From contig JALQBC010000023.1 of the NCBI GenBank assembly GCA_023375675.1, positions 588,062 to 652,061 of the forward strand: a DNA stretch of 64,000 nucleotides, in the 5' to 3' direction. The translations under genes were made by a program, and so were the position numbers. Under the pieces are notes generated by a model. The model did no database searches, was not told the DNA's origin, and worked only from the letters and a program-made list of their open reading frames with translations. Each line of letters starts with the position of its first letter. The first letter of the stretch is position 1. Positions 25,576 through 53,351 of the stretch are shown here, in pieces. The DNA comes from Cytospora piceicola (Eukaryota > Ascomycota > Sordariomycetes > Diaporthales > Cytosporaceae).

Positions 25576-28500
25576 ATGGCTTTTTGGCCACCGAATGGGC
25601 ATCTAGAGCAGGCTCCGATGCAGGAACGACGACAGGAAGAAAGGCCAACGATGCCGCAAGCTCAATCGACCGCAGCAGCTAGACAACTTCAAGGTGGATT
25701 CGTGGGTAACGGACAGAACTTCTGGGGAGGTTATAATACCGGAGTCAGCCATGCCTTCACTGGATCATTCGAGGCGCAACCGGCAGTCAACAGTCGCTTC
25801 GACGACGCGTATTACGCGAATGGGGATGGCGGCGCGTTCCCTGTCTCGGCCTCGCCGCACCCGAGTGTGCCGTCCGCCGCTACCACACACTTCGGCACCA
25901 ACGACACCACCCATACCACGAGTGCAAGCATCTCGAACGCGTCCCAACCGACAATAAGTCGATTTCCGGATGGAGTGTCTTCGGGCACAGCCGGCCCTGG
26001 GCCAACGTTGGCTTCATCGACCTTCAATGCGCCATCGCCGTTTGCACATACTCATGTTGGGCCGGCTGATTTCCAACGGAATATGACATCTCCAAGTGTC
26101 GCCGTACCCCCTTCAACCAAACATGGTTTACCCGCTGCTTCTGATCCTCCGAAGCCTGTTTCGGTCCAACGCAAACCACTTCCTTCCCAACGACAGCAAT
26201 TTGTACATTCCACAGGAACGCCATCTCGTGGAACCGCAGCAGGCAAGACAGCTACGGCACAGGCAAAGGCCCAGCCCATAGCATCTACCTCTCGCGCAAA
26301 TAGCCAAAGCAGCAGCAATACTCAACGACCAAGTGGTCCGCCGAACGATATTCCTGCTCTGAAACCTGCACTGGCACCAGCTTTGGATAGAAAGCCCAAT
26401 AATGGCAGCAGTAGCACAGCCACAGCTACAGGCACAAACAAGCCGCTCCTAAAGATGAGGAGAACCGGCCAGAATTTCCCCCTCTCCTCAGCTGCATCGT
26501 CTTCGCCAATTCGGATGACATCTTCGTTGCATCAGAGAACCAACTCGGGCTCACCGATTGGAAGGTCCGGTCCTGGGTACCCGAGTACTGCCGTACGAAA
26601 GGCCACTGACTCTGTGCCGGGCAAGGCTGCTGTATCGTCACTCGCAGGGAATGAGACGAGCACCTTGGCTACGAAGCCTCGTGATACGAGGGCAGATCCA
26701 GTTGCGCCCATTAAAGCACCCACTAGTGGTAGGACACATCGTTCCTCTATTGTTCTGTCCGCTTTTGCTGATTTGGGAAGTAGCAAACTTGATATCAAAT
26801 CATGGCGATTCTCTGAATGGGTCAAAAGTCCGACCTATCGAGATTCCCAGTGGATCGAAACCTGTGTTGGACCACGCTCGCGGTGGCTCGAATGTGGATG
26901 GTGGTAGTAGCCTAATTTCCAAGAAGCCCGAGGACGCCAGCGTGGAAAAAGGCAAAGGTTCTGATATTGAAACTGATCAAGATTCAGACGACGAAATCAA
27001 GTACGAGACGACAGACAAAACTACGGGCTTGAATGATGCATTGGAACTCGATGAGGACGCCGCCGCCGACAACTCCTCAGACGACGATACGGAATCCGCC
27101 AGTGATGACGATGAGACAGAGGGGTTGCAGAAGCCGGCTCAGGGCGGGGACGCATATTCATCGTTCCGCCAACTGTTCTTGCCGCCCGAGGAGTCTGGCA
27201 ATGAAGAAGACGATGGGACTGAAGACGACGACGACGCCTCTGTCTCGGAGTCTACAGAGTCTGCGCTTGCTGCAGAGCCCACAGCAGCGTTGCCCTCCGC
27301 TAACATTCAACACCAGATAGATTACCCTGCCAACATCTTGGAGATGGCTAATCCCGGCCGTGCCTATATTTCTTGGTCTGATGAAACTATCTCATTCAAG
27401 AAAAGCCACGGTGCACTCTTTCCTGACGGATATAAGAAATGTACAGTGATCCCAGACCACCCTTGGGTCTGCGCAGTACGTTCTTGTAGACTGGCATACA
27501 AAACCCACCTGGGTCTCTTCAATCATTTCAAGTTCTCGCACAAGAAAGCCATGTTCAATGATAATATGGACGGGACCTTATCCCTGGTGGGTTCCTACAC
27601 GCACAAGAACGAGTCTGGCATGAGCCCCCCGGTCGTGGTATCCAAAAAACCTGTCGACCCCAAGGAGCCGCCAATGCTTGAGCCATCGATACCGGTGAAG
27701 GAGATGCGAAGAAACAAAGATGCGTCTCTCTTACTCAAGACTGTCTTGACTGCTACAAGCCCCACCGAAGAGAGCCTGGTCATGACTGACTTAAAATCCA
27801 TGTCTCCCAAGCCGCCTCAACACCCTAGCCCCCCAGCCAATGCGGACCCAGGCAGTTCTGAGAAGATGTGGGAGTATATCCGCCCCTTCCTCACCGTGCA
27901 TGATTCGATCCCGACCAAAAATTGGGTTCGGCACATCATCCATCTCCCCCGCCTCCGTGATGTCGAGTGGAACGAGGAACGGAACAAGGAGTTCCCATAC
28001 CGGGACTCACACCCAAGAGACATCACGGCTCTCCTCATCTGCGTCACAGGAGTTAGGGCTCCAACGCCGTGCGCCTTCTGTGCAGAAGGCAAAGGGCCCT
28101 TCGTAGGCTGTTTCATGATATCGCCCGACGCAAGCGAGGAAGCCAAGACCGCTGTCTTAGCCTGTGCCAACTGCTACTATCACTGCGGCCAGTCGCAATG
28201 CACCCACAACCGCAATTCGATATATCGCAGGGACCCTCGGTCTCGCGAGTCGCAACAAGCAAGAAACTATAACCTCAAGGCCCTTTCCGACAAGGCGGCC
28301 GGCAGGGTCGCTGCGATGGCAAATGCTCAACAACAAGGTGTAATTCTGAAGACGCCGACTCCTATGATGTCGGCCATGACCTCTCGACCTCCGATGAGAC
28401 TGTTTGAACCATCTGAGATCAACAACATCGAGATGGCGAGTGAAAGTCGTACGTACAAGGTGATTCATGGGAAAGATGGTGAGATGATCCAGATGCATGG

Positions 28501-30125
28501 AGCTCTAATCCCTGAGCATTATGATCTCGACCGCTCTGTACCTGGCTATCCATGGATCTGTCCCGTACGCTCTTGTCGGGGGGTCCACAAGAAAATAGCC
28601 AGTCTAGGGTCCCATTTTGTTGTATGTTGCCCATGGCTCGCCCGGATGTGTCTATGCCCATATGTACTAACCAAGAGACTTGCAGGCTAAGCATCGTGGT
28701 TGCGTTCTCAATGACAACCTTGATGGCACGCTATCCCAAGTTGGGATCTACAACAGACCAGTATCTGGCAATACCTGCCCAGCTCTTGTAATCTCGAAGA
28801 AGCCCCTGGACAAAGCGGAACCACCAATGGAGAAAGCGAGAGTCCTGAGCGACAAGACTGCGAAGCCGGTCAAGACTGTGAAGCCGCCCAAATCCATGCC
28901 TCTAGCTGTATCCCAGCCTAAGGCAAATGCCAATGCTAAAAGGCTATGGGATTATATACTGCCCTACTTGCCGCAACCTCTGACAACACTAGATGACCCA
29001 CTCATCCACAAGATCTTTGAGCACCCGAGGGTCCGGTCGATCAAGTGGCGGAAAACCTGGCTCAAACATACCCTGGACGACGACTGGAGACAAGTCGCCG
29101 GGCTCCTCATCCACCTCGTCGGGGTTGAGTATGAGGGCCCGGTGGCATGCTGCACATTTTGCCGGCGGGGCGAGGGCCCCTTTGAGGGCTGCCAGGTCCT
29201 CCCGCCCGATGTGTCCTACGAGTCTTCCAAGCTTATCAAGAGCTGTGCAAACTGCTTCTTCATCCACCGTAGAGACCACTGCAGCACCAAGTCCAGCTGG
29301 GAAAAGAGGTGCGAATCTCGAGCCGACGCGAGTCTTTTGTCGGCACCACCGATTGACGATTGGGCCGCTGCTACTGCTACCTCGTCGTCCATCACAAACA
29401 ATAAAAGACCGTACGTTGAGGAGTCTGACGACGAGAGGCAAGAGCCAAAGCTGTCGCGCCGACGGTCCGAGAGGATGCGGGTCAAAGTGCCAGAGGTCGA
29501 GAACATGGTTGAGCCTCCGAGGAAGCTCGTCACATTGCCTCTGCTATCCAAGGAGAAGCAGAGTGTTGCGACAGCCCCCTTGCGGAAAAGTAGCACCGTG
29601 GCTGGGGCTTCATCTACGGCGCTCATGTCTTCTGGCCAGATGGATCCCGAAGGCCTTCTCGAGATGGAGGAGTGGGAGATTGCGCCTGGCCGCATTCGCG
29701 AAACAGGCGTGAGCCAGCCCAATAGTAAGTGTGATGCAGTCACTTTCACCGTTTCCCTATACCCTCACCTCCCAATCTTTTAGTCTCCTGTCCCGAGCTG
29801 TACTAACTCGCGTCCACTCATAGACATAGCATTTTCCAAATCCTACCTCGAGGCCCAGCAGATGGTGCGCGTCTCATCAGAGCTCTCCTTCCGCGTCGAG
29901 ACCGTCAAGTCCGGCCGCACGCTCGACTTCGAGGCTGATAAGGCCAGGACGCGATACTGCTCTGTCGCGAGTGGCAAGTTGCGGGTCACACTTGAGGGAC
30001 AGCCCGAGTTCACGATCGGGACGCATGGGCTGTTCAAGATCAGCCCTGGCGTGAAGGGCCGGGTGCAGAACCGACTTTATATTGACTCTGTTCTGCATGT
30101 CAATGCTGTTGAGGGTGAATCTTGA
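25576..30125 (+). CDS. Zinc-finger / Cys-rich (DUF3716-like) / cupin protein
   Basis: Four exons, 25576-26779, 26829-28621, 28686-29724 and 29824-30125, encode 1445 aa. Residues 1-400 are Ser/Thr/Pro/Ala-rich and disordered; about 430-530 are acidic. A C-x4-C-x12-H-x4-H finger lies near 615-640; a second one near 977-1003 is cut by intron 2 and is intact after splicing (SHF-V/AKH). Each finger is followed by a DNxDGTLSxVG motif. Two Cys-rich modules (about 748-862 and 1084-1200) share W-[ED]-Y-I-xP, R-xW, C-x2-C-x2-G-x-GPF-x-GC and CANC-x-(F/Y) motifs, which I match to DUF3716. Near 1325 comes MEEWEIAPGRIR, then IAFSKSYL and a C-terminal cupin (CSVASGKLRVTLEG, IGTHGLFKISPG). The cupin resembles the CENP-C/Mif2 dimerisation fold. 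Nuclear function is an inference. The first intron (49 nt) is the least certain. Confidence 0.78.
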
Positions 30126-30503
30126 ACACGGGAGATTTGTGAGAGGCAAGGCGTTCAAAATGCTGCGGGTGGCACCTGATAGAAGAAATATGCAAGGTTG
30201 ACGAGTGGCGGCGCTTCGACAGATGACGTCCCGAGGTATGATGTGCATATATGTAAATGATGTTCTTGGCACCGATGGAAACCCATACTTGTAATAGGGC
30301 GTTGGAGGTCTAAAAAGGTATGGGCGCAAGATCAAACGGCTGACTTGTCACAGCCTTTCTCCCAGACTTGGGAGCTGAACCATATTTCCACAGCAGGTCC
30401 GTCGTGACATCGCTTTAGATAGTATGACTGAGAGCAATCAAGAAGCAGTGACTGGTGCGCATCTCGGTTACTACCTCGATAGTTCCCCATGCCTGTTTTG
30501 CAG
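30126..30503. other. Convergent intergenic spacer
   Basis: 3' flanks of the cupin-protein gene and the OB-fold gene. No gene or clear signal seen. Confidence 0.6.
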
Positions 30504-31655
30504 TCATGAAGACTTTTCCTTCCACCACCTCATAAGGCCCTCCACATCACACCACGGCACATTCATCGGGTTCTCGAACCACCACCTAGCCCCACTCTTT
30601 GGCTTCTCATTCCCATACTTCTTCAAGCTCCCGCCATCGAACCGATGATTCTTCACCCCCAGCAGAAGAACCACACTCCCAACTTCCGGCGCAAACTCGT
30701 CCGGATCCAAAAACACCGTCAACAGAACCTGCTTGCTCGTAGACGGGTCAGCCAGCCGAGCCGTCCGCTGCTTGCCGACGTACGTCGGCAGGAGCGCCGG
30801 TTCCACGTCCGCCAGCGACGCGACGACGGCTAGGATGTTGACGGCCCAGTTCTGCTTGTAGGGCAGGTTCGGTATGGACTTGAGTGGCGTGAGTCTCAGG
30901 GGCTTGGAGAGGTCGCTGGATGCCCGGTGGTAGTGATTGCTGTCGCTGTTGCTGAGTGAATGACTGTAGCGTTGTGGTTGTTGTTGGAGTAGCTCTGCTT
31001 CTCTGCGGCGGTCGTTGGCTCTTTGCTCGGATATGTTCATGGTTTCGAAGTCGTCATCCTCGTCGACTTCATCCAGAGGTTCTACTATATTCCCCTGAAG
31101 GGGTCCGACGCGAACCTCTGTATTTGGAAGCGCCGTTGAAGCGGCATCTGCTTGAGCTACTACCGCCGCGTCTTGAGTTTTTGGGTATTTCTTGATTACT
31201 GATTGCTCCTTCCCCGTCGTCCCAGCCATCTCCATGTAAGCAGTATTCCACCCCACTGTGGTCATATCCTGGACTACCAGAAAGACCATCTCCGCTGGAC
31301 CCTCGGACCCATCATCGTCTCCCTGTTGATCCGGCCTAAGCGGGATGGATTGTATTTCAAATCTGTTCAGCCGCACGTAGCCACCTTCAAAGAACTGGTC
31401 ACTGTCCACAAGGCGGTGCATCTCTGTGCGGAGCAGCGCCTGTATGCACAGCTCGCCATCGCCTAGGAGTAGCCGGACCGTACGGTACCGTTTTGAAACT
31501 GGGATGGTTGCCTCGATGTTCTCAACGAGTAGTACGGAACCAGGAACACAGTAGCTGGTCCGAAGTATCTCGGAAATCAGAGGACGAGGCGCGAACGGCT
31601 GCGAGGTGTCGGCCGCTACTATCGCGGTGTCAAAAGGAGTGTTGGACACAGACAT
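30504..31655 (-). CDS. OB-fold-like protein with two beta-rich regions
   Basis: A single-exon frame of 383 aa from the ATG at 31655. Residues about 35-105 (SVLLVENIEATI, RTVRLLLGDGELCIQAL, GGYVRLNRFEI) look like an OB fold. After an acidic, Gln-rich linker, residues about 265-370 contain LKSIPNLPYKQNWAVNILAVV, an opening reminiscent of RPA large-subunit DNA-binding domains, then RLADPSTSKQVLLTVFLDP and GSVVLLLGVKNHRFDGGSLKKY. Homologues of the second region are, as I recall, widespread in ascomycetes without known function. Single-strand nucleic-acid binding, possibly telomeric or replicative, is inferred from fold resemblance only. It diverges from guanylate kinase across a spacer that carries telomere-like motifs and an ACGCGT box. 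Confidence 0.75.
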   Translation of the reverse strand: MSVSNTPFDTAIVAADTSQPFAPRPLISEILRTSYCVPGSVLLVENIEATIPVSKRYRTVRLLLGDGELCIQALLRTEMHRLVDSDQFFEGGYVRLNRFEIQSIPLRPDQQGDDDGSEGPAEMVFLVVQDMTTVGWNTAYMEMAGTTGKEQSVIKKYPKTQDAAVVAQADAASTALPNTEVRVGPLQGNIVEPLDEVDEDDDFETMNISEQRANDRRREAELLQQQPQRYSHSLSNSDSNHYHRASSDLSKPLRLTPLKSIPNLPYKQNWAVNILAVVASLADVEPALLPTYVGKQRTARLADPSTSKQVLLTVFLDPDEFAPEVGSVVLLLGVKNHRFDGGSLKKYGNEKPKSGARWWFENPMNVPWCDVEGLMRWWKEKSS

Positions 31656-32096
31656 GAGGTCGACGTCCGCGACGGCATGGTATCAACTCATGGCTGCTGC
31701 TGAACCCGTTTCAAGGTATGGGTGACAAGAGTAGACAGTGAAATACCAGAACGCATGTGCTATGGGTTCTAGTGGTGTTTGAGGGGTCAAATGAGACTTG
31801 TGCAATGTTGTCTTCCAGATGAATGCCCTTTATTCAAGCGCGTAAGGTTGTCATACTCGGGGACGTCTTGTGAGACGCGTCTGCCCTAACCCTACGCGCC
31901 TGCCCTAACCCTAGCAAGAGGGTCAGGCTACGTTGACCGCCTGCCACATTCAGTGCCGCGGGACATTGGACAACCCTCTAAAATACTGCCGGTCGAGTCG
32001 GTCCCACATCGGGGTCCTCCTCGAAACAGTCACGATTCCAGATCTTATGCATCAGACGGCGGCAAGGTTCTTCCCTTCTGTCCCCACGAATTCCCC
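31656..32096. promoter_or_regulatory. Divergent promoter: ACGCGT box plus two telomere-like boxes
   Basis: The 441-bp spacer between the OB-fold gene (minus) and guanylate kinase (plus) has ACGCGT at 31875-31880, the core of the yeast MluI cell-cycle box. CCCTAACCCTA occurs twice in the same orientation, at 31884-31894 and 31903-31913, each preceded by CTG. Such boxes are known binding sites for Myb-type telobox factors in other eukaryotes; binding here is inference. Confidence 0.55.
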
Positions 32097-33045
32097 ATGA
32101 TCTGCCGACTCGCCCGTCCCCTTCTCACAGCAGCAGCCCGCACACCAGCTCTCTCTCAGCAGACCTTCTACGCCAAAGCCTCGACCTTCTCACCCTTCCG
32201 AAGCCTCTCAACGACAACCATCACCATGGCACCCACCCTCCCCCCCGACCGCCGGCCCCTCATCATCTCGGGCCCCTCAGGCGTAGGCAAGGGCACCCTC
32301 TTCAAGAAGCTCTTCGCCGTGCACCCGGACACCTTCACCCTGTCCGTCAGCCACACCACCCGCTCCCCGCGGGCGGGCGAGCAGGACGGCGTCGACTACC
32401 ACTTCGTGACGCACGCCGGGTTCGAGGAGCTGATCGCGCAGGACGGCTTCGTGGAGCACGCGCAGTTCGGCGGCAACCGCTACGGCACCAGCAAGAGCAC
32501 GATCCGCGAGCAGGGCGAGAAGGGCAAGGTGGTGCTCCTGGACATCGAGATGGAGGGCGTCAAGCAGATCAAGAGCAGCAACATCCCCGCGCGCTTCGTC
32601 TTCGTCGCGCCGCCCAGCGAGGAGGAGCTCGAGAGGAGGCTGAGGGGCCGCGGCACCGAGAAGGAGGAGAGCGTCCAGAAGAGGCTGGCCCAGGCTAAGT
32701 ACGTCCTTCGGACCCCTCTTTCTTGGCCCCCCTCTCATCACTCCTATTCCCTGCACATGCGGCCCAGATGGGGGCATGTTGGTTGGTTGAGTGGAGCCTG
32801 TGCTGACTTATGGGTTATAGGCTGGAGCTTCAATACTCTGAGATTCCTGGGGTTCACGACATTATTGTGAGTTCCTGTTCCATTTCTTTGGCCGGAGTTC
32901 GAGTGCCATCCAACATTCGAACCCCCTCGAGCGCAACATCTTGCTACATAATACTGACCCATTGCGACCGTAGATCGTCAACGACGACCTGGACAAGGCT
33001 TACAAGGAGCTGGAGGATTTTGTCTACAAGCCTCTTGAATCATGA
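32097..33045 (+). CDS. GUK1: Guanylate kinase, probably with two alternative starts
   Basis: Phosphorylates GMP to GDP with ATP. Exons 32097-32698, 32821-32866 and 32974-33045 give 239 aa from the first ATG, or 196 aa from an in-frame ATG at 32226. The P-loop is SGPSGVGKGT, followed by SHTTRSPRAGEQDGVDYHF (GMP-binding) and VLLDIEMEGV; the short form has the normal length of a cytosolic enzyme. The extra 43 residues (MICRLARPLLTAAART...) are rich in Arg, Ser, Thr and Ala, lack acidic residues and look like a mitochondrial presequence. The first ATG has C at -3 (weak), the second has CACCATGG (strong), so leaky scanning could yield both mitochondrial and cytosolic forms. Confidence 0.94.
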
Positions 33046-33543
33046 GCTTTATACCCCTAGCATGTAAACCCACAGTGTGAGGCTTCTAGAGATTTCTCAG
33101 CTTCAGGCACAGCCAACCAAGATCTCTCCCAAATGTTTCCCAACTGTCACAGTTCAGATAGATTCGATCAACTAAACATCTTAATATGTATTCCATCAGG
33201 TATCAAGACTAGACTCTAATTAGAGCACAGAAGGGGCTGGATTAAGAATTGGAGAGAAAAAAAACACAGAGAAAAAAGATCTCGATAGAAGGCCGGGAGT
33301 ACTAAAAAGGAAATAAGCGTAATAGTCCAGTCCGTGGGAAGTACGTTCGTCCCTCATGCGCCCAGCAACCGCTTCCAAACACAAAGCATTACGCCAAGGG
33401 GTATGTGTCCAGCGAGCAGCACGCGTAGTTGCGCCACCACCAGCCGAGATTATGTTGGCCCAAACGCGTCGTGTTGGCCCTCATATACCGATGTAGCTGT
33501 TTTTCACGCTGCCATCGATGGTTCGCTTCCGTGGCGGCTCGTC
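33046..33543. other. Convergent intergenic spacer
   Basis: 3' flanks of guanylate kinase and septin. A purine-rich AGAAAAAAAAC stretch lies near 33255-33280; no gene seen. Confidence 0.6.
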
Positions 33544-34720
33544 CTAGTAGCCGTTCATGGTCATGCGTTGAGAGCTGCGGCTCAACTCTCGGTCGGCGGC
33601 GGGGCTGATTGGTCTGCTGCTGTGTCCTTGTGCGCTTCCCTCCTTCAGTGCCAGCAACTGCTTGGCACGGAAGGTCTCGTAGTGGATCTGGGACGTCGTC
33701 TCGATGAGGTCCTGGAGGTGGGTACGCAGCAGGAAGTTTCTCAGATAGACAAACTCGCAGTGGTTCTCGTCCTCAACGTTGATGACTCCCCATCGGTTCT
33801 GACGACCCCGGACCTGGTTACCGTTGACAATGATCGACTTCTCGGAACCAACAACGGCGAAGGGGATCAGGCTCTAAAATCACGTTTTAGCTGATATCAC
33901 ATGCAACAATGCCATAGGTGCGGCGTCGTCTTACCTTGATCTGTGTGTTGACAGCACGCTCCTCGTCGTCAAACTCGTCATTCTCGTAGGGGTACATCTT
34001 AAGGTTGTGGAAAGCGAATTCCTCCTTGATGCGCTCCTTGAAAGCGAGACGCTCCTCCAGAGTCAAGGTATCGGCCTTGGCAATGACAGGAACGACGTTG
34101 ACAACATCGGACAGCTTCTTCAGCACGACAATATCGATGGGCTTCAGGGAGTGGCCGGTGGGTTGGATGAAGAACAAGCAGCAGTGGATGCGGGTGTCCT
34201 GGATGTAGCGCTCACGCTGCGCGGTAAGCTCCTTTCGGAGGTAGGCAGAGTGCTGGTCCTTGATGTACTTGACGATAGGGTCCCAGCAGCGGTCGTTGTT
34301 GATCAGGTCGCCGTAACCAGGGGTATCGACGATGTTGAGTCGGAGGCGAACGCCATTCTCCTCGATGATGTGGGAAACGGGGTGGATCTCGGTAGTAGAT
34401 CGGATGACCTCCTCGGGTTGCAGACGACCCTTGGACTCGATCAGGTGGGAAGCGAAGATGGTGTTGATGAGAGTGGACTTTCCAAGACCGGTCTGGCCTG
34501 TGATTGAGGGAAACACACGAGACGAGTCAGCTAATCATTCCCAAGTTGATGGAATACGGGGCCATAAAGCCCCCAATTGACAAGAGTTGTGAAGCTTACC
34601 GACGCAGATGACGTTGAACTGGAAGCCACGCTTCAGGAGCTTGCGCTCGATCTGGCTGGTGATGCTGTCGAAACCGACATGGCTCTGGGGGTAGATGCTT
34701 GCAGCAGGCATGGCCGCCAT
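33544..34720 (-). CDS. CDC10: Septin, Cdc10 group
   Basis: GTP-binding septin that assembles with other septins into filaments at septa and growth sites. Exons 34720-34600, 34497-33935 and 33873-33544 (introns 102 and 61 nt) give 337 aa. FDSITSQIERKLLKRGFQFN followed by the rebuilt P-loop VGQTGLGKST is typical of the Cdc10 type, which lacks the long C-terminal coiled coil; here the protein indeed ends soon after the septin unique element (FRAKQLLALKEGS). The G3 motif DTPGYG and G4 motif AKAD are intact, as is FLLRTHLQDLIETT. It shares a divergent promoter of about 0.8 kb with the mitochondrial ribosomal protein gene. Confidence 0.95.
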
Positions 34721-35531
34721 TTTCGCAGAAGGAATGGTATCGAAATTAACCGGACAATAATCGAATAGTTGAGAGAGTGTTGGTGAAGCTGGGCGAAGTG
34801 AACAACAAGACCGTGTAACCGATTTCGAGGGTGTCGTGGGATGTTTCGTCAAGCCACAATGGGGGAAAGGAACAGAAGGGAACGAGTGAAAGATGAAAGA
34901 TTGATGGAAGATGGAGATGGAGATGTCACAAACTGCAACTACAAAGTGCTTGCCAGTCAATTCAATTCGAGATTGATGAGGAGGAGGAATTCCTGCCAAA
35001 CAGTTAATTTCCGTCTCTCCAGCGAAGGGCAGAAAGGGGTCGCAGCTCACTGGAAAGGGGCTAAGAGGCGACCCTGTAAGGCCTGTGGCTGTCAATTGGC
35101 CCCGCGGCCCGAAGATGAAGGGCCCGTGCGCCTGAATTGGCGCTCCACACCTGGCCACCCTTGGCGTGCCAGGTCGTGCCTGGCATGCATGCTGGGCATT
35201 TCGCCTGGCCCGTGCTCTTTACGGAATAAGCGTCTGGGGCGGGCTCGCGGGCTCGGCAGGCGCTGGACAGCTGCTGCTACTGCTAGCTGCTGTACCGCCG
35301 CCGCCGTACGGAGAAGAAGTCACGCTAGGAATTTTTCTGGAAGACGACCAACCTCAAACATCCCACGCGACAGCATCCTCAACCACGAACCTTACGCCTG
35401 TCAATTGAATTGCGCCCGCCCTTCGGTCTATACGGACTCGCATATACGACGTCTGTTTCTCTACGGTCACCCCAAGACCGCCCCGGCGACTGCTCTAGTA
35501 AGGGCATTGAACGACCCACAGCCCGGCGACA
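34721..35531. other. Divergent promoter, septin and bL32m
   Basis: The spacer has GGCGTGCCAGG-type repeats (about 35150-35200) and a GC-rich block near 35250-35310. A 251-codon plus-strand frame crosses it but is of low complexity, matches nothing and I do not accept it as a gene. Confidence 0.5.
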
Positions 35532-36008
35532 ATGGCCGGCGCGATGTTGTCCACGCGGGCAGCAAGCTCTCTCTTCCCTCGACTCTCCTCCTCTAGATTC
35601 ACATCGTTGTGCACACGGCAAATATCTCTGCCTTTCCTTTCCAAATTCGCCATCGCCCTGCCTGCGATATCCTTGAACCTACCGTCCATCCCGTCGTTAC
35701 TAGAAGGAATATGGGAGGGTATCCTCAAGGCTGTGCCAAAGAAGAAGACGTCGCATTCCAAGAAGCGACATAGGCAAATGGCGGGCAAGGCGCTCAAGGA
35801 CGTCACGAATTTGTGCAAATGCCCAGTATGCGGAGGAGTCAAGAAGATGCATTACCTTTGCGAGCATTGTATGAACAGTAAGTGTCTCCGTCTTCGTCCA
35901 ATGTGGTATGGTGTTATGCTGACATAGATTCTAGAGATGAAGAAGATGATGGACGAGAAGACCCGGGCTAAGACGGCGGAAATTACGATCAAGAAGGACC
36001 AAGAGTGA
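35532..36008 (+). CDS. MRPL32: Mitochondrial ribosomal protein bL32m
   Basis: Component of the large mitochondrial ribosomal subunit; in yeast its maturation by the m-AAA protease is needed for ribosome assembly. Exons 35532-35877 and 35935-36008 give 139 aa. The N-terminal 70 residues, rich in Ser, Arg and Leu, look like a mitochondrial presequence with a processing region before VPKKKTSHSKKRHRQM, the start of the bL32 core. The zinc ribbon CPVCGGVKKMHYLCEHC is complete, with the second pair just before the intron. It is divergent from the septin gene. Confidence 0.93.
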
Positions 36009-39257: not shown

Positions 39258-39581
39258 TTTGACGCTAGCAAGTTGTCCTCTCGGGTCTGGCCTAATTCTA
39301 GGAAGACTATTTGATTTTCGAGGTTTGATTTGGCTCACTTGGCGGCAGCTAGAAACCAAACACCAGCCCTGGTTTCCGGAATGTGCCACATGCGATTACG
39401 ATGGTGGGAAGGGCTAGGAGTCAAAGGCGTTTGCTGCCAGGATATGCTTCACAAGGGCTGCAATGTAGGCATTGTGGCTGGGTATCCCAAATTCAATGGT
39501 TGTGCTTTGTAACTTGGCAAAATATCTAGGTCGAATTTGAGAGCAGACAAAGTGCTACTCCAAACGAGATTCGCATTTCAA
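39258..39581. other. Convergent intergenic spacer
   Basis: 3' flanks of POLD4 and the queuosine salvage gene; nothing else seen. Confidence 0.6.
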
Positions 39582-44187: not shown

Positions 44188-44256
44188 ACTCGACTTCTGG
44201 GTTCGGTTTTGCCGTCACTTTGCAGATGGATTTGCAGTGATGTTGGACTGCATAGC

Positions 44257-45370
44257 TCATGAGAAGGCGGCATTCAGGCCGCCGTCAATCGTGAGGACAC
44301 AATTATTGGCATAAGAATTGGTGGCCAGGAAGGCAGCGGCGTCTGCCACCTCCTCGGCTCTGCCTAAACGCCCAAGTGGGATTTGCTTCGAGAGCTTCGA
44401 CTTGTCGAGGTCTGCATGTACATTAGCATTCGATATCCCCTGTACTGATATGACGAGGCCATAATAGAATGGCCGCCATGCGAGCGACGGAAGGAAGTTT
44501 TGAAACGTTTCAAGGCCTTTCGGATTTAGGGCTTGGGGGATGAAGAGGTTGGTTCTTCTCTCTGATATTGTGGGATGAGATTTGACGAACGGATGAATAC
44601 ATGGAAGGATCTGAGAGATCTGGATTAAAAGAACAGCAATACAAAAGAAGCAGCCATCTTGGTGGTCAGGATCAATACTCACTTTCGATCATCTGGGTCT
44701 CGATATAACCGGGAACGAGTGTGTTCACCCGAATTTGGAACTGTCCCATTTCTTGAGACAGGGCGGATGTGAGACCTGTAAGATTTGGGACATCCAGCGT
44801 TAGAAGACGTCAAATAAAAACAAGAGAGCCTTTCACGATGATCTTACCAAGGATCCCAGCCTTGCTGGCCGCATACACAGAAGCACCAACCCCGCCTCTC
44901 ATAGCCATGACACTTGATACGTTAATGATACTGCACCCCGGGCGCTCCGCCCTCGCCCTCTTCATCATCAGCTTCCCGATGGCCCTGCACCCCAGCACGG
45001 TGGAGCGCAGGTTCGTGTTCAAGATGCTCTCGATCTCAAGGGGACTCGTCTTGACCAGCAACGAGGACTGGGAGACACCAGCCACGTTCACCAGCACGTC
45101 CACGCTGACCCCCTGCTCGCCCAGCCTGCCGACTATGCTGTCCCACGTCTCGGCCTGGCCCACCTCGCCGGGAAGGGCGAGGTGGTCTCTCCCCTGGGGG
45201 AGGGCGGAGCATGCGGCTCTGAGGTTGGCCTCGTGGCGCCCGACTAGGACGCACCGGGCGCCGTCCTGGGCGAAGCGCTGGGCGATGGCCTGGCCTATCC
45301 CGCGGCTGCCGCCGGTTATTAGGGCGGTCTTGCCGGATAGGGCTGATAACATGGTTGTGGATGTGGTCAT
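44257..45370 (-). CDS. Short-chain dehydrogenase/reductase, FabG-like
   Basis: NAD(P)H-dependent reductase of the classical SDR family, most like 3-oxoacyl-ACP reductases. Exons 45370-44848, 44775-44683 and 44411-44257 give 256 aa. The cofactor motif TGGSRGIG begins at about residue 19; NVAGVSQ, the catalytic Ser in IINVSS and the Y-x3-K in VYAASKAG are all present, and the C-terminal YIETQMIENL and LTIDGG motifs fit. The second intron is long for the region (271 nt), but the joined sequence ENLDKSKLSKQIPLGRLG matches the family. Whether it serves mitochondrial fatty-acid synthesis or another pathway is undecided; no presequence is clear. It is convergent with UBA2, 70 bp apart. Confidence 0.88.
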
Positions 45371-46333
45371 GGGTGCACGAGTGATTCGTTGCTGAGATCC
45401 TTTCAGGGGAAAATACCCTGTACCACCATATGGGGTGAATTAACAGACAGACAATATTTAGGATCTTCTCGTCTTCTCGTAAAAGAAATGAGTGACTTGA
45501 AGAGACAATTGACTTGAAACCAAAAGCGATCAAGAGGTGAAGGGATATGTTATGGACTATCCTGATTGGGGTCCTTGGTATACCTATCCTGTATATATCC
45601 TGTATATATCCTGTATATGATGATGTATTGCTGTAGCTACAGGAGCTCCCCCTGTGTCTGAAAGCCTAGTAAGAATGTGCTGAGTAAATACACTGGGCTT
45701 GTCTCTCGGTTCCGCGGGGCCAAACCTTGAAGTCCCACTACCGCAACCCGCGGGGCGCCAGGGTGCCACCGTGCCTGAATACATACAAGCTGCAAGCTGC
45801 ATGGTGTCAGGGATTCTTGGGGCTAAAGAGGTGACGGGCTACGGGCTATGATTGTTGAGCGCACCTTTCAAGGGTCGGTCGGCCATACATGCCCAGGTTG
45901 GATGGTTGGGATGGACATCAACGTCGTCTCGTTTCGTCTCGTCTCGTCTCGTCTCGTCTCGTCTCGTCTCGTCTCTCCTCGTCATATTTCCCACGAAAAG
46001 CATGGATGGAGCTTCGCAGATTCTCAAGTCTGCCGTATCTCGTCCGACCCTCATCTGATAATTATCCACCCACAGAGAACTGCCTGTCGGTTCAAATAAA
46101 CTCCACCGCTCCCGAGAAAGACCTTTCGTCGATTATTCATGAGCGCCGCAACCGAACCGAACGACCGACCTTATCGATAAAATCCCACAGCGCAAGTCCG
46201 CTGCTCTTCGAGTCGAGTCTGCCTGCCCCCGATCCCAGTCAATGCCTCTGCGGTCCGTCCCTGTGGAACTCGAATATCACATTCAGAAGGGCATTGATTA
46301 CATGAGGAGGAGGTCATTGATCCCCCGTGGTCC
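45371..46333. other. Divergent intergenic spacer with tandem repeats
   Basis: Between the reductase and the sphingoid-phosphate phosphatase. It has three near-identical 12-bp ATATATCCTGT units at about 45585-45618 and the GTCTC array described separately. No gene seen. Confidence 0.5.
45936..45975. repeat. (GTCTC)8 pentanucleotide array
   Basis: Eight exact GTCTC units, with degenerate units (GTTTC, TCCTC) on both sides, in the promoter spacer upstream of the phosphatase gene. It reads open in three frames on both strands, which explains several spurious short frames here. Confidence 0.95.
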
Positions 46334-48415
46334 ATGAATCAAACAAATCGTGGCTCTAGCTCCGGCTCAGAGCCTCACGATGCCCCGCAAGGCGCGAAAT
46401 CGTTGAGCCCGGCCGACTCGAACTCGGCCAACGGCCAGGACACCAAGGAGGTCATCGATGCTGGCTTGAGGAGTTTAGACCATTGTACGTCGCCTTGGAA
46501 CATGATTTCGCACGTGCAATCTTGGCCTTTGGCTGGCGTGCTGCCCGCCCGTTTCCTTATCACATGGCTATGTACCTGCGTAGTTGCTGTGCCTGCCATG
46601 GAGGCTGCTAAGAGGAACCCGATATACCTTCACTTTCTTGTATGTGACTTGCACTTGCTGACATGCCTTGCGACCTAGACAAACGAGCCCTGCCAAAATG
46701 GCGCTACGATCTCCGTCAGGCGATGCTGCCGCTGGTGCGGTGGGAAACGCCCTACCTCGCCTACTTCCAAGCAGCGATGCGCACGCCCGCCCTCGATAGA
46801 TACTTCGCCATCACGGCCAACCTCGGCACACACACCTTCTTCATGATCGGCCTGCCTATACTTTTCTGGTGTGGATTCCCGGCATTCGGGCAGGGGCTGG
46901 TACATATACTGGCCGAGGGAGTCTTCTTCACGGGCTTCATCAAGGACATGGTCTCCCTACCCCGGCCACTGTCCCCTCCATTAAACCGGATCACCATGTC
47001 CGGGTCCGCTGCCCTTGAGTATGGCTTCCCGTCTACACATTCCACGAACGCCGTCTCCGTAGCTGTATATGCTTTGCTATGCCTTCGATCCGCCGACAAC
47101 ACCCTTGCGCCGACAACCAAGCTTGCGCTCGAGCTGCTTGGGTACTTCTACGCCGCCTCCATTGTGATAGGCCGTCTGTACTGCGGCATGCATGGCTTCC
47201 TCGACGTCATCGTCGGTTCCACCATGGGCGCCGCCATATCGCTGGTCGAGTTCTACTACGGGCCACCTTTCAACGCATACCTACATGCTAGTGGCTGGTT
47301 TGCGCCTTTCGTCCTGGGCGTGATCATCATCATCCTCGTACGCGTACACCCGGAGCCAGCAGACGACTGCCCCTGCTTTGACGACTCCGTCGCGTTCGCC
47401 GGCGTCATGATAGGCCTAGAGGCGGGGCTGTGGCACGTAGACACGGAGTGGCTCAGGGGGCCGTTCCCGGGCCTAAGCTGGGCCATGGCCATCGTGCGTG
47501 TCGTCTTCGGCGTGCTGACCATCGTGGCGTGGCGCGAGGTCATGAAGCCCACGCTGCTCAAGTCGCTGCCGGCCCTGTTCCGCGTCATCGAGCGGCTGGG
47601 CGTGTCGCTGCCCCGCCGCTTCTTCGTGCCCGCCTCCGAGTACAAGAACATCCCCAACCTCCTCAAGCTGCGCACCGACAACGTCCTCCCCACCATGAGC
47701 GACCTCCCCCAGTTCGTCAAGACCCTGCGGGCGCCGACCAGGGGCCGCAGCGTGTCGATCGGCCCGCAGAGCGCGGCCGACGCGTACGAGGCGCTGGCGT
47801 ACCGCGAGCGGAGGAGGAGGGAGTCGATGGGGTCCAACGGCAGCGTGCGGAGCCACACGGACCTGCGGGGCCGGTTCCAGGCCGACGGGGCCGCGGACGG
47901 CGGCGGTGGCGGTGACGACAGGGACGGGCGCTCGGCGGGCGTGTCGACGGCGCTGGCGGACTACGAGCAGCAGATGGGCCAGGGCGGGGCGAGGGTGGTG
48001 GTCACCCGGGCGTCGCCGGACATCCCGCCGAGCTCGAGGAGGAGGTCGCCGAGCCCGTGCCCTTCTGTGGGTGCGCATGGGATCCGGGAGGAGGACGAGG
48101 GCGAGGGCGAAGGGGAGGACGGCGGGGAGGTGATGGTCCTGCAGCAGCATCGGGAGGACGAGCTTGGCGAGAGGGAGATGTTCTCCCGGCTGGTGAAGCC
48201 GAGGGTTAGGTATGACGTGGAGGTTGTTACGAAGCTGGTGGTTTATACGGGTAAGTCACTGGAATGTTGCTTGTTGGCGTTGGTTGTTGCACTGGAATAT
48301 TGGCTAACATTCGTCCTGCTACGTAGGTATCGCTTGGCTTGCCGTCGAGGGTATACCCCTCTTGCATGAGCTCCTGGGGTTCAATGTTGGGTATAAGCAT
48401 CTAAACGTGGAATAG
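46334..48415 (+). CDS. LCB3: Sphingoid long-chain-base phosphate phosphatase
   Basis: ER membrane PAP2-type phosphatase that removes phosphate from dihydrosphingosine- or phytosphingosine-1-phosphate, balancing ceramide synthesis. Exons 46334-46484, 46679-48250 and 48327-48415 give 603 aa; junction 1 rebuilds DHYKRALPKWRYDLRQ. The lipid-phosphatase signature is complete: KDMVSLPRP near 139, PSTHSTNA near 168, and RLYCGMHGFLDV near 210. Several hydrophobic spans flank these. Residues about 390-560 are a charged Ser/Gly/Arg/Glu-rich insert, longer than in yeast, and a short last hydrophobic segment GIAWLAVEGIPLLHELLGF closes the protein. GC content is high over the insert. Confidence 0.92.
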
Positions 48416-49597
48416 ACTCGGCCGGGATTTCGTCGGATGCATGGGGGGGGGGGGATGTGACCCAGCGTACTAGGAAGTGTTGTTGGGCCGTCGCAGGATC
48501 AGAAACCGAGCACAGAGCTGTTCCTGGTTTTGTACGATGAACGAGAATACGTTTCTATGTCATAATCTTTGCTTTCTTCGTCTAGTCTACCAGACAACAA
48601 GACGACCATGTTAGAGGTATAATACATGAAGATAAGACTGATACAAATCGTGAGTGGATATACATACTTGCAACACCTGTTGGTGATGCCTTAGATTGAG
48701 TGATGTGTGCATGCAGGTGTTAACATTGAATTGAAGCCTAATTAGTGAGTGAAGCGCACGCAGACACAGGTTCCTTGTGTCCGTTCGGTTGCGCTATACT
48801 TGGCTCGAGTTCAGGGCTCTGTATTTGTTTCTAAAAGTGCAAATCGAATGTATAACACAGACTTAATTATCCTAGGGTACGTGGTGGTGGTATTCAGGAA
48901 GTTGTGCTAAAGATTTCTATTACACGTGCCTCTAACATTCTTCACAAATTACATACATTGCATCCTGAAGTAGGCAAGCAACACTGTCTCGTTTCGTAAC
49001 ATTAGTCTACACTATACAGAAAATCATATCTCAATGCACTATTTAGGCTCTTGACTCTAGCTGTACATTCCTAATAGCATATATACATCTATAAGTTTTA
49101 TCCATGGTCCAGGTTAGGTGCGCAATGTAATTGGACATCTATAATTGCAGTTAACTCCAAGAATATGCTGCTTGGCCGTGTATCGCAGCATCGTTATCCA
49201 GCTCTAAAAGAGGAACTTAGCTTGAAAACGTGTTAACAAGGAGTCTGTTTAGTTCGGTTCACATTGACCATCACTTCAAGGGGTTATTCGTATGTTGATG
49301 CACATGTGGAGTTGCTTCAACATGGGCGTAGGAGATATATTATATTTCCGAGATCTTTCGCATGAGCTCTAACATGTCCTTGATGCTCGTGGTGAAACCT
49401 TACTCAGACAGTGAATAGTCCCATAGGACCGGTGTCTTGAGCTTGAGACAACTTTCTCGTCACAAACAAAGCGCATAGAGTTCAAAAGTTGGCTAAACTG
49501 GAAAAGTTCTTCGCTTCCAAGGTTCTGGAAACATCCATGCATTTTGTATGTTCTACTATAACGGCTCAACATCTCCTACCAAGTACTGGTATCTCCC
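48416..49597. other. Convergent intergenic spacer
   Basis: Poly-G run at about 48443-48453, then AT-richer sequence. No coding frame, RNA gene or repeat array is supported in this 1.2 kb. Confidence 0.5.
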
Positions 49598-50395
49598 TCA
49601 CTCACTCTTCGACCGCTTACCAACCACAAGCCGATCCCACCGTCTATAAGCCGGCAACCCCTCGAAGAAACCCGCAGCAACCCACAAAGACCACACCTTA
49701 GAACCCCTCCTCAGTCCAGCCGGTGCCAACCGGCTGCGGTCCAAATAGAAAGACTCAAAGGCGTGAATAGCCAGCACCAGCGCGAGGATCTTCCTCACAA
49801 GCCAGATGTACCCCACGGGGCCGTACGGAAAGCGGACCAACTCCAGCACCTGCCAGGCCCCAGACCCGGGCGTTACGAACCCGCCGTACACCAGCACGCA
49901 GCTGAACCAGTAGAACGCCAGGCCCGCGAAGCTGACCCAGTCGCCCCCGCGCGGCCAGTAGAACGGGATCTCCCCAGCCGGGGTGCTTGCGGCGCCGGCA
50001 GACGGAGGAGCGTGGCCCGGCTCCTCCAGGGCCTTCCGCGCCTCGTTGCTCATGTCGGCCAGCCTGACGCGGCGGTCGTCCCAGGTGTCCATCGGTGGGG
50101 TCAGGGCGACGGTGTGCACGCCCGACGCGGAGCGGATCTTCATGGACGTGAGGTCCAAGTCGAGCATCTCCGCGTTGGCGGCTTCCGAGGCGGAGATGTG
50201 GGCGTGGTGCTGCAGGATGGCGGACATGTCGCCTAGGTGGTCCTTGTTCATGTGGGCGATTGTTCGGGCCTTGGGGTCGACTTCGGTGGCGGTAGATGAT
50301 GGGGTGGACGATGTGGTGGTGGTGGTTGAGGTAGAAGGGGGCTGAGTGGTGGGTGTGTCTCTTTGCGAGCGGGAGGCCGAGCGGGTTACAACCAT
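49598..50395 (-). CDS. DUF2470-domain membrane protein
   Basis: A single exon of 265 aa from the ATG at 50395 (MVVTRSASRSQ); the longer frame starts only at TTG. After a Ser/Thr-rich N-terminus, IAHMNKDHLGDMSAIL near residue 47 is the DUF2470 signature, a fold seen in haem-related proteins such as HugZ and as the C-terminal part of some flavin-oxidase-like proteins. The second half has three hydrophobic stretches (FAGLAFYWFSCVLVYGGFV, YIWLVRKILALVLAIHAF and VWSLWVAAGFF), so the DUF2470 part is tethered to a membrane. Fungal proteins with this layout are common and uncharacterised. Haem binding is an inference. Confidence 0.85.
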   Translation of the reverse strand: MVVTRSASRSQRDTPTTQPPSTSTTTTTSSTPSSTATEVDPKARTIAHMNKDHLGDMSAILQHHAHISASEAANAEMLDLDLTSMKIRSASGVHTVALTPPMDTWDDRRVRLADMSNEARKALEEPGHAPPSAGAASTPAGEIPFYWPRGGDWVSFAGLAFYWFSCVLVYGGFVTPGSGAWQVLELVRFPYGPVGYIWLVRKILALVLAIHAFESFYLDRSRLAPAGLRRGSKVWSLWVAAGFFEGLPAYRRWDRLVVGKRSKSE

Positions 50396-51405
50396 CTTGA
50401 CTGTTGATATAAAGGGAACCAAGGTGAATTATGGTTGGTGTTTTTTTGTGTGAACGGTGTTGAAGATGAAAAGAAAAGCTCCGGATGAAGTCGTCGTGGG
50501 CTGAGGATCAAGAAGGCGAAGTTGACGATGAGGCGTCGTTCAAAATTTGAAAGGCAGCAAAACCCCTGCTACCTTTGTACGGCTCCACAAAATTCACGGG
50601 AAGAAACCTCGGGCCAAAGCGAAGCGTGGGGGTTTTTATGTGGATGTCAGCTTGTCACACCAGCTCGTCGAAACTCTTGACTATCCCAGATTGGATGATG
50701 TCGTGCATGTTGTGGCTTGTAGTTTAAAGTTTGGGTAAGGCTGGGGTAAGAAGGCTGGGGTACTTAGGTAGGAAGGCTGGGAGGGGGAGATCCGGATACA
50801 TATGACCAAAGTGTAACCGGAATGATAAGGAAGGGAGCAACTCAAGGCTCTCTTCAAATTGTCAGAGTTCATATTTACTTAGCTTATCCGTCCGTCCGTA
50901 CGTACGTCTGGTACATATGATAGACTTCCATGTCACCAAGGATCAATGTCAGGCATTCTTTTCTTCTCTTCATTCTCAAGTTTGAAAGGGGACATCTGGA
51001 GTAACAAAGTATAGCCAATGTCAAATAAAAACACATAGGTATAGAGGAACAGCCAGCATGAGCCTCTTTGGTACTAGTACAAGGTGGATTGTCTCAGAGT
51101 TGATTTAGCCTTCATGAGCTGTTTGATTGTTGTTTTCTGATGAAAATATATCAATAGCAATGTCCGGGGTGACATTAACCCTAACCCTCACTCACCCCAG
51201 GCGGGGTACGCCCCTCGACCCCAGAATTTCCCCCTGACGGGAAGACACCCACTCGGCTCTCGCAATCCTGGCTTCTCGTGACATGCCACTCACTCACTCA
51301 CTCACTCACTCCACTCACTCACCACTCATCCACTGACTGCCAGGTGCCTGCTATCAACACAAAATCCCTTTCTCCTGGGCTGCGAATCACGTCCTGCTAC
51401 TCAGC
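50396..51405. other. Divergent promoter with telomere-like box
   Basis: Spacer between the DUF2470 gene and the Cys-rich/cupin gene. TTAACCCTAACCCT lies at 51175-51188, about 220 bp before the cupin-protein start, followed by a CACT microsatellite at 51286-51322. CCGTCCGTACGTACGT lies near 50890. Confidence 0.5.
51286..51322. repeat. (CACT)n microsatellite
   Basis: About nine CACT units with one interruption, in the leader of the Cys-rich/cupin gene. Confidence 0.9.
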
Positions 51406-53351
51406 ATGCCGCTTCCGGGTCTTTCCACATTCCTTGGCAAAAGATATGACGTCTCATTGGTCACCGACGAGGAGGAGGATGTTGAAGGGTACAATCCGCC
51501 TCCGGCTGATGAACATTCATCCGGGGAAGACTTCTCTGGTGAAGGTTATTCCGCCGGAGCGTTGCCTAACGAAATTGGCGCAGAAGGAAGTGAGGAAGAG
51601 GAAAGTGACGAAGAGGAGAGTGGCGGAGGGGAACGTTCTTCCTCTTCTACTGAAGTCCAACCTTCACATACCTCATCAGGGCAACCGCAGACCAACCCAT
51701 TTCCCAGACCTTCACCAGCGTCTGCCCATAATAAGGGCACTGGAATTTCGAAAGGCGCAGGACCTAACGTCTTGCCGAAGTCTGCACGCCGCCCACGAAA
51801 CTCGGCCACCTACAATCTGAAGACACTCAGCCGTCAAGCTGTAGGATATTCTGACTACTCGCCCAAGAAGCGACATTCCCAATTTCTGGACCCAGGCTCG
51901 CGGCGACAGTCCGAGCCACCCACGTATAACCTAAAGGAGCTCATCCAGCGGACTCGTGGTCAGCCCAAAGGCACTCAAAAATTGATCAACAATGTTGCCA
52001 AAAGACCTGCCAAGGGGAACGCCAGTGTCAATGGTCAGACAAACAGTCGCAAAAAGGAGTGGCCTGTGAGTGACGACAGTGACAATGATGGTGGCCCTTC
52101 GAAACGTCAACGGTTCAACCCGGATACCAGCATTGCTGACAGCTTTGCTTCTGAGGGCCTTGACGTGGCCGACTCCGCGACACAACAAAACCTCGACTCC
52201 GCTTCAAAATCTGCCGCCCAAAGGCCGTGGACGGATGGCGCTGTCTCCTCGAAGCTGCAGGCCTCATCAGAATTGCTGCAATATATCATCCCCTGGATTC
52301 AACACGGTGGCGGTGCCTTGGATCCCAAGGGAATTGCAGACGATGAGCGCATGGCGAAAATGCTAACCCTTCCTATGCAGCGCACCATCGAGTGGAATAA
52401 TGCCAGCCGGAACCGTTGGAGTGTCAATAGCAAGATTGACATCGTCGCCTTGGTGATGCAGCTCACTGGAGAAGATTCGCCCTCACCTTGTAACAGGTGC
52501 GCGTCTGATCCCAAGTATGGTCAATGGGTGGGGTGTAAGGTCATGTCGTCAAAAATGGCCAGCGAGGCTTGGAGACTTTACGGTTGTGCCAATTGTGTGT
52601 ATCATGGTAAACAGACATACTGCAGCTTCAAGATCTGGAGCAGAGAACGGGCCACAAGAGAGACAGTATTTCAAGAAAACCCGAAAGAGAAGGGCCGTGA
52701 TGGAGACGCAGAGGATGATTCGTCAGAGTTCCCTGACCAGAGTGAAGCAAGTGTTGCGGAGATCACTACGACCAAGGGCAAGAATGCCAAAAGTTACACC
52801 TCGGGACATCCTGTGTACCAAAACAACAATGGCACCAACCTGCATGCGGAACCAACTCGACATCAGGACGCATCTCTCGTATCCGCTGGCCAAGTTGGTG
52901 ACATGTCGCTTAGGATGGAACCATGGGAGAAGGCTCCAGGCCGTCTCCGTTCTCGAAACTCAGAGGCATTGGAGAGTAAGCTCCCTGGCATTGCACATAT
53001 CCGTTTTCGTTCAAATGCAAAGCCACCAAAACTGACTGGGCTCCAGATATCGCTTTCTCCAAGTCATATCTCGCCAATGGCCATGAGATTCCAGTCTGTA
53101 GACAGGCTGCATTCAGGGTTGAAGTTGTCCGATCCGGTCATTCACAACAATTCAAACCCCAAAAAGACACCATACGCCTGTGCTCCGTCGCGTCGGGGAA
53201 GCTCACCGTCAACATGGATGGCGAAGACCCCTTCAATATTGGTTCGCACGGAATGTTTCGAATATTGCCGGACTCGGGATGCATTATCGAAAACGAGATC
53301 TACGACGACGTGACAGTGCACGTCACGTCCATCAAAGTGGAGGACGATTGA
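51406..53351 (+). CDS. Cys-rich (DUF3716-like) / cupin protein, paralogue of 25576 gene
   Basis: Two exons, 51406-52975 and 53047-53351, give 624 aa. The N-terminal 280 residues are acidic/Ser-rich with two copies of a TYNLK(T/E)L motif and a basic KKEW-KRQRF patch. Residues about 288-412 form one Cys-rich module: LLQYIIPWI, MQRTIEWNN, DIVALVMQLTG, C-x2-C, WVGC, YGCANCVYHG and CSF. Then comes MEPWEKAPGRLR and, across a 71-nt phase-1 intron, NIAFSKSYL and a cupin (LCSVASGKLTVNMDG, IGSHGMFRILPD, TVHVTSI). Order, linker motif, intron position and phase match the larger gene at 25576, so the two descend from one ancestor. This copy has one Cys module and no C2H2 fingers. Function unknown. Confidence 0.8.

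What the first reader, a model, noticed from the sequence alone, without database searches (positions are those of the whole stretch)
25576..53351. Two paralogues combining Cys-rich modules with a CENP-C-like cupin
The genes at 25576-30125 and 51406-53351 share, in the same order, a helix-plus-Cys module (C-x2-C ... GC ... CANC), a MExWExAPGRxR linker, an IAFSKSYL motif and a small C-terminal cupin. A phase-1 intron sits at the same place before IAFSKSYL in both. Established: DUF3716-type modules are widespread in fungi without assigned function, and CENP-C/Mif2 proteins end in a dimerising cupin. Inference: this is a fungal family of dimeric, zinc-binding, probably nuclear proteins, duplicated within one chromosomal region.
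Basis: partly seen in the sequence, partly recalled or inferred. Interest (0 to 1): 0.75.

Follow-up and report, generated by a model that had tools for sequence, protein, structure and literature searches.

The report
Zinc-module proteins with CENP-C-type cupin
Two neighbouring genes of a Cytospora-like fungus, plus a third elsewhere in its genome, encode an apparently unstudied family of proteins that join zinc-finger-like modules to the kind of pairing domain known from the centromere protein CENP-C, which makes a paired, chromatin-bound scaffold plausible but untested.

Summary
Gene A (25576-30125) and gene B (51406-53351) are as described: DUF3716, WExAPGR linker, phase-1 intron in the same codon, C-terminal cupin. 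Relatives are widespread in Sordariomycetes (82 proteins at E<=1); 88 of 100 proteins collected carry the cupin. Its model is confident (pLDDT 91.5). Foldseek ranks CENP-C cupins first and fifth, but VIA Z ties them with bacterial cupins. Sequence is more specific: the family profile scores the genome's own CENP-C 20.8 bits against 7.8 for the best of 22 control frames. Yet 0 of 21 members reach Pfam's CENP-C cut-off, a CENP-C motif pattern that finds the genome's CENP-C matches 0 of 103 family sequences, and a true CENP-C exists elsewhere: so not CENP-C itself. Best reading: dimeric, zinc-binding chromatin adaptors with a CENP-C-type cupin. An R[RK][ST]xR motif, in 16 of 58 linkers against 1.1 expected, may be a nucleosome anchor. 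Dimerisation, zinc, location and function are untested.

The parts
25576..26728 (+). Gene A exon 1: low-complexity N-terminal region (proposed start ATG 25576)
   Evidence: Open frame; relative P0020 aligns over 569 of the first 570 residues at 69% and starts MAFW too
26729..26783 (+). Gene A intron 1 (proposed; other acceptors, such as 26780 and 26828, are not excluded)
   Evidence: GTAGGA donor, three acceptors tied; P0020 is continuous at the same place (KAPTS-ENLSS)
26784..28621 (+). Gene A exon 2: acidic region, C2H2-like finger 1, DUF3716 module 1, start of finger 2
27470..27541 (+). C2H2-like finger 1: C-x4-C-x12-H-x4-H (CAVRSC...HFKFSH)
   Evidence: Pattern position; Pfam lists no C2H2 family for this exon at E<=5
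27857..28237 (+). Helix + DUF3716 module 1 (DUF3716 proper 28028-28207)
   Evidence: PF12511 1e-13
28268..28285 (+). YNLKAL motif, shared with gene B
28559..28694 (+). C2H2-like finger 2 (CPVRSC...HFV|AKH), interrupted by a phase-0 intron at 28622-28685
   Evidence: GTATGT/CAG sites and a TACTAAC sequence; gene C has an intron one codon away
28686..29724 (+). Gene A exon 3: DUF3716 module 2, basic linker, WExAPGR linker
28932..29312 (+). Helix + DUF3716 module 2 (DUF3716 proper 29103-29288)
   Evidence: PF12511 5e-12
29460..29474 (+). RRSER: possible arginine-anchor motif
   Evidence: R[RK][ST]xR in 16 of 58 low-redundancy inter-domain regions against 1.1 expected from shuffles
29664..29699 (+). 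MEEWEIAPGRIR linker
   Evidence: Conserved in the 21-row alignment A4
29725..29823 (+). Gene A last intron, phase 1
   Evidence: GTAAGT donor, TAG acceptor
29826..30122 (+). IAFSKSYL helix + C-terminal cupin of gene A (exon 29824-30125)
   Evidence: AF2 model pLDDT 91.5; Foldseek, VIA and profile matches
51406..52975 (+). Gene B exon 1: acidic N-terminus, two YNLK motifs (51811-51828 and 51925-51942), helix + DUF3716 (52261-52659), WE linker (52915-52950); no C2H2 pattern found
   Evidence: PF12511 6.4e-14; AF2 model of the module pLDDT 92.9; motif positions
52976..53046 (+). Gene B intron, phase 1, in the same codon as gene A's last intron
   Evidence: relatives P0003, P0004, P0005, P0006, P0009 are continuous here
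53049..53348 (+). IAFSKSYL helix + C-terminal cupin of gene B (exon 53047-53351)
   Evidence: 43% identical to the gene A cupin, E 9.5e-21

Best explanation
The genes encode members of a family, widespread in Sordariomycetes, that works as a dimeric, zinc-binding chromatin adaptor. Shown by computation: the order C2H2-like finger - helix/DUF3716 (six invariant Cys) - disordered linker - WExAPGR - IAFS helix - cupin; the predicted cupin fold; its nearest relationship, among cupins tested, to CENP-C cupins; lack of the metal-binding motif of enzymatic cupins; and conservation of modules above inter-domain stretches. Inferred: the cupin pairs two chains and offers a docking pocket, as CENP-C cupins do; the Cys modules bind zinc and contact DNA or protein; in gene A the RRSER motif may dock on nucleosomes; gene B, which lacks fingers and that motif, may act as a pairing partner that modulates gene A.
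Confidence: 0.6

Rival explanations
1. A second, divergent CENP-C that works at the kinetochore and binds CENP-A nucleosomes.
For: CENP-C-type cupin; a WE-containing stretch ELEPWEQGG lies upstream of the cupin in the genome's CENP-C too, in the same order; R[RK][ST]xR motif in some members.
Against: Motif patterns that find the genome's CENP-C match 0 of 103 family sequences. The genome has a CENP-C with motif and cupin on C47. The WE match scores -3.1 bits, no evidence on its own.
Confidence: 0.12
2. An ordinary transcription factor: fingers bind DNA and the cupin is a dimerisation or ligand-sensing domain recruited from generic cupins, unrelated to CENP-C.
For: C2H2-like fingers; Cupin_3 matches more members than CENP-C_C (15 against 9 of 21); VIA ties with bacterial cupins.
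Against: In the same genome only CENP-C, and none of 22 control frames, matches the family profile clearly (12 of 20 Cupin_2 matches were fetched for it); Cnp3 leads in PDB by two orders of magnitude in E-value.
Confidence: 0.22
3. The gene models are wrong and the cupin exon belongs to a separate gene.
For: No RNA-seq was available; some relatives end before the cupin (for example P0007, P0008, P0011, P0014) or have extra residues at the intron place. 12 of the 100 proteins collected show no significant cupin, one of them the window's own frame of gene B, P0001.
Against: The same intron, phase and codon in three paralogues; independently annotated relatives join the exons; the cupin ends the protein in 83 of the 88 that carry it.
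Confidence: 0.03
4. A domesticated transposon protein: DUF3716 spread with retroelements.
For: One of the 8 DUF3716 hits in the genome (C43:9014) lies near a frame with a weak Tf2-1-like match, 24.2 bits under a cut-off of 30.
Confidence: 0.04

Closest known systems
CENP-C / Mif2 / Cnp3 (PF11699)
   Same: C-terminal non-catalytic cupin; nearest sequence match among cupins tested
   Different: CENP-C motif patterns not found; finger-like and DUF3716 modules instead; the genome has its own CENP-C; 0 of 21 members reach the PF11699 cut-off
DUF3716 proteins (PF12511)
   Same: Six invariant Cys, C-x2-C-x11-C-x16-C-x2-C-x8-C in gene B
   Different: Of 8 DUF3716 hits in this genome, 4 (in 3 genes) lie in genes with this cupin and 4 do not; in the gene B model a helical part N-terminal to the Cys part belongs to the confident module
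Sporothrix bragantina SBRCBS47491_007038 (P0079)
   Same: Relative that a public source already names for a Mif2/CENP-C cupin domain; linker, cupin, DUF3716, finger pattern
   Different: One finger and one DUF3716, not two; its CENP-C_C score is 25.6 for the segment and 20.3 for the whole protein, cut-off 29
Generic cupins (Cupin_2, Cupin_3, oxalate decarboxylase)
   Same: Same fold, tied VIA Z; weak Cupin_3 matches in 15 of 21 members
   Different: HxH(x)3-5E metal motif missing in 65 of 68 rows; low profile scores for the control frames tested

Membership tests
CENP-C / Mif2 | C-terminal cupin fold | tested here: met
   AF2 pLDDT 91.5; Foldseek top match 7x85
CENP-C / Mif2 | Cupin sequence closest to CENP-C cupins | tested here: met
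   with Pfam undecided
CENP-C / Mif2 | PF11699 above the curated cut-off of 29 bits | tested here: not met
   0 of 21 members; best 25.6 (P0079 segment); no match for genes A, B, C
CENP-C / Mif2 | CENP-C motif (R-[ST]-x-R ... P ... aromatic-Trp; pattern recalled and fitted to the genome's CENP-C) | tested here: not met
   Two patterns that find the genome's CENP-C match 0 of 103 sequences: 100 collected, A, B (P0001 is the same gene) and the part of C from its finger on. The stricter pattern misses the genome's CENP-C too and is not used.
CENP-C / Mif2 | Centromere localisation and kinetochore binding | not testable with these tools
   Needs microscopy or pull-down
DUF3716 (PF12511) | Curated score cut-off of 22 bits | tested here: met
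   A 51.4 and 46, B 52.1 bits
Catalytic cupin | HxH(x)3-5E metal-binding motif | tested here: not met
   Absent in gene A and gene B; present in 3 of 68 aligned rows
C2H2 zinc finger | Pattern C-x4-C-x9..14-H-x3..6-H | tested here: met
   Two in gene A, none in B; one in gene C read
C2H2 zinc finger | Pfam C2H2 family above cut-off | tested here: not met
   None listed for gene A exons at E<=5; P0031 only under cut-off
Zn2Cys6 (Gal4-type) cluster | Pfam or fold match | tested here: inconclusive
   Six-Cys order looks alike (recalled); Pfam lists no Zn_clus match for the window exons at E<=5; Foldseek returned nothing

The most novel reading that the evidence does not exclude
An ancient offshoot of CENP-C in Sordariomycetes has turned the centromere dimerisation cupin into the core of a non-centromeric, nucleosome-docking zinc-finger scaffold: arginine anchor on the acidic patch, fingers and DUF3716 choosing sites, cupin pairing chains and recruiting partners, with gene B as a finger-less regulatory partner that pairs with gene A.
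Probability: 0.18. Interest if true: 0.8.

Novelty: new variant of a known kind. Interest (0 to 1): 0.5.

Why it matters
The CENP-C cupin is known as a centromere dimerisation and recruitment module. A broad fungal family, with relatives named from Podospora, Chaetomium, Colletotrichum and, more divergent, Neurospora, that couples such a cupin to zinc modules would show that the module was reused outside canonical CENP-C, and would give DUF3716, a domain without assigned function, a testable setting in laboratory fungi.

Tried and rejected
Fold of the DUF3716 module: the model is confident (pLDDT 92.9, pTM 0.87), but Foldseek returned no PDB match at E<=10, so VIA had nothing to align; among viral models only two hits with E 7.1 and 9.2. 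This does not show a new fold. A sequence search against PDB gave one chance-level antibody hit, E 0.4.

Catalytic cupin: rejected for lack of the metal motif. Transposon origin: one weak neighbouring match only. NCBIfam: nothing relevant for the three pieces scanned. Zn2Cys6 origin of DUF3716: resemblance of Cys order only.

CENP-C motif: my first pattern proved to miss the genome's own CENP-C when I checked it, so it is replaced by the patterns. R[RK][ST]xR as half a CENP-C motif: weakened, since the genome's CENP-C has TRSGR there; the novel reading was lowered from 0.20 to 0.18 for this. A looser [RK][ST]xR is found in 22 of 58 linkers (shuffle mean 12.2, maximum 20) and 22 of 58 N-termini (mean 17.9).

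Tree of 80 cupins: A-type (11 rows) and B-type (13 rows) are each well supported, but many forks, the place of gene C (long branch) and the root are unresolved. It cannot say whether B arose from A.

Rows left out: alignment A3 for the model holds both window cupins and 66 of the 88 cupin-bearing proteins, picked by hand, gene C left out; A4 holds 21 and A5 28 hand-picked rows. The cupin controls are 22 open frames of 90 residues or more at 15 of 16 loci fetched (L034 gave none); they include overlapping loci and off-frame reads, and 8 of the 20 Cupin_2 matches were not fetched under that family. In some searches hmmsearch reported 985 and 977 of 2000 shuffled sequences, with maxima 5.7 and 7.4 bits. 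In one search the CENP-C exons were joined one base off; one search corrects this.

Literature (listings of titles and abstract starts, unless said otherwise): 'DUF3716' 0 papers; 'PF12511' 1 paper, one passing mention seen as a passage; 'PF11699' 0; CENP-C + cupin + fungi 13, Mif2 + cupin 21 of which 20 listed, CENP-C + cupin + paralog 10, CENP-C + Neurospora + kinetochore proteins 10 of which 8 listed: no such family in what was listed; Drosophila Cenp-C paralogues are the subject of one listed preprint (PMC12724597). The library lacks most subscription journals. PMC6755791 (CENP-C cupin structures) is not held and is known here only through passages of PMC7110144. The search for the HMGN core letters found them in none of the 8 papers listed, so that likeness is recalled.
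Full report
What is there. The window lies in a 43.6 Mb assembly (G000, contig C18). The nearest named relatives are Cytospora species (gene B 63% identical to C. chrysosperma VSDG_07615; gene A region 575-1443 81% identical to C. schulzeri VMCG_04124), so the organism is probably a Cytospora or close kin (inference). Gene A (25576-30125) reads as a 1443-residue protein from four exons and gene B (51406-53351) as 624 residues from two. The acceptor of gene A's first intron is uncertain; P0020 favours the one used.

Gene A holds a repeat: C2H2-like finger, a DGT...SKKP stretch, and a helix + DUF3716 module, twice. Gene B has no finger pattern and one DUF3716. A YNLKxL motif occurs once between the units of A and twice in B. 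A third gene on contig C14 has finger, DUF3716, WEEAPGR and cupin, with the phase-1 intron again splitting the Asn codon before IAFS. The cupin has these three matches in the genome at E<=1; DUF3716 has eight at E<=0.1; the tool calls such counts lower bounds.

A family, not a local curiosity. Two searches with gene-B-type queries gave 16 and 9 proteins (the first including the window's own frame); a search with gene A residues 575-1443 gave 82 at E<=1, named from Cytospora, Diaporthe, Coniella, Podospora, Chaetomium, Neurospora, Sordaria, Colletotrichum, Sporothrix, Fusarium, Pyricularia, Biscogniauxia and others; that these are all Sordariomycetes is recalled, and the search is limited to relatives sharing words and length, so other classes are not excluded. 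A profile of 41 cupins (38 of them from these proteins, so partly circular) matched 88 of the 100 proteins collected at E<=2e-12; one more (P0085) is insignificant and 11 have none, among them the window's own unspliced frame of gene B. Of the 88, 50 were not seeds. In 83 of the 88 the cupin ends the protein; the exceptions are four Fusarium models and P0099. By pattern, A-type Diaporthales and many Sordariales have two units, Colletotrichum and Xylariales one (orders recalled). The Neurospora models have only a partial, weaker cupin match and no WExxPG pattern. Gene A and B types form separate supported clades, 11 and 13 of 80 rows. The pair seems old: A- and B-type relatives are listed with the same longest-contig length in C. 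schulzeri, two C. mali assemblies and Coniella lustricola, and in the first three the locus tags are 12-13 apart (that these are the same contigs is inferred).

Selection. Against the C. schulzeri relative, the modules of A are 80-94% identical and the stretches between them 65-75%; against Podospora appendiculata the cupin is 50%, the first DUF3716 module 51%, the stretch between the units 16%. Against expectation, the second DUF3716 module is only 28% at that distance.

Not CENP-C. The genome has a separate CENP-C on C47 with the motif TRSGRTSYQPLKFWRNE and a cupin. Two motif patterns that find it match 0 of 103 family sequences. A different pattern, R[RK][ST]xR, occurs between the last DUF3716 and the linker in 16 of 58 low-redundancy regions (from 72 regions that could be cut out of the 100 proteins), against a mean of 1.1 and maximum of 4 in 1000 shuffles, and is not enriched in the first 250 residues of the same proteins (2 of 58, mean 1.4). 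Gene A has RRSER; genes B and C have none; the genome's CENP-C has it outside its motif. Arginine anchors with a neighbouring serine are typical of acidic-patch binders, CENP-C among the proteins named (passages of PMC10606924); likeness to the HMGN core is recalled and not confirmed by a call. Shuffling does not remove shared descent, and an import or DNA-binding role would look the same.

The DUF3716 module. The model of gene B 52261-52659 on 28 rows has pLDDT 92.9. All six Cys are invariant in these 28 rows, which were picked because they carry the module. No solved fold was returned.

How it probably works. CENP-C cupins dimerise, and in fly and fission yeast they bind partners (CAL1, Moa1) at or near the cupin pocket (passages of PMC7110144). 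By homology the family should pair through its cupin and recruit something, while fingers and DUF3716 provide zinc-dependent contacts; the metal motif of enzymatic cupins is missing in gene A, gene B and 65 of 68 rows overall. Gene B, with cupin but without fingers and RRSxR, could pair with gene A and tune it. These last steps are inference.

Verdict. The finding is real and worth attention: a broad and apparently unstudied protein family with a CENP-C-type cupin. Searches of the open-access library found no description in what they listed, which is not proof of absence.

Noticed in passing
L013 (contig C14:1696000-1702500), cupin at 1700497-1700808: Third paralogue with finger pattern, DUF3716 split by a proposed intron in its first CxxC, Pro/Gln-rich stretch and cupin; long branch in the tree, no clear orthologue among the proteins collected.
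   Followed up: partly
L016 (contig C43:5500-12000): A DUF3716 frame lies near a frame with a weak Tf2-1-like (retroelement SH3) match under Pfam's cut-off.
   Followed up: partly
L015 (contig C25:1016500-1023500): An 856-residue open frame with one DUF3716 and no other Pfam match at E<=0.01.
   Followed up: no
window 19826-19948, minus strand: An unrelated Cupin_2 match (31.4 bits, above cut-off) lies in the same window; it gave no control frame.
   Followed up: no
window 51176-51190 and 51282-51330: Two copies of CCCTAA, then a CACT-rich repeat, shortly upstream of gene B; telomere-like, possibly chance.
   Followed up: no
window 23942-25072 and 30507-31682, minus strand: Neighbours of gene A: a metallo-beta-lactamase-fold frame (27.6 bits, above cut-off) and a frame with a replication-factor-A N-terminal-like match slightly under cut-off.
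   Followed up: partly
P0012 (Discula destructiva): Besides DUF3716 it carries a second six-Cys stretch with Gal4-like spacing (recalled pattern) just after it.
   Followed up: no
P0094, P0096, P0098, P0100 (Fusarium): Finger pattern and cupin without a DUF3716 pattern, in very long models listed with a CorA-like domain; possibly fused gene models.
   Followed up: no
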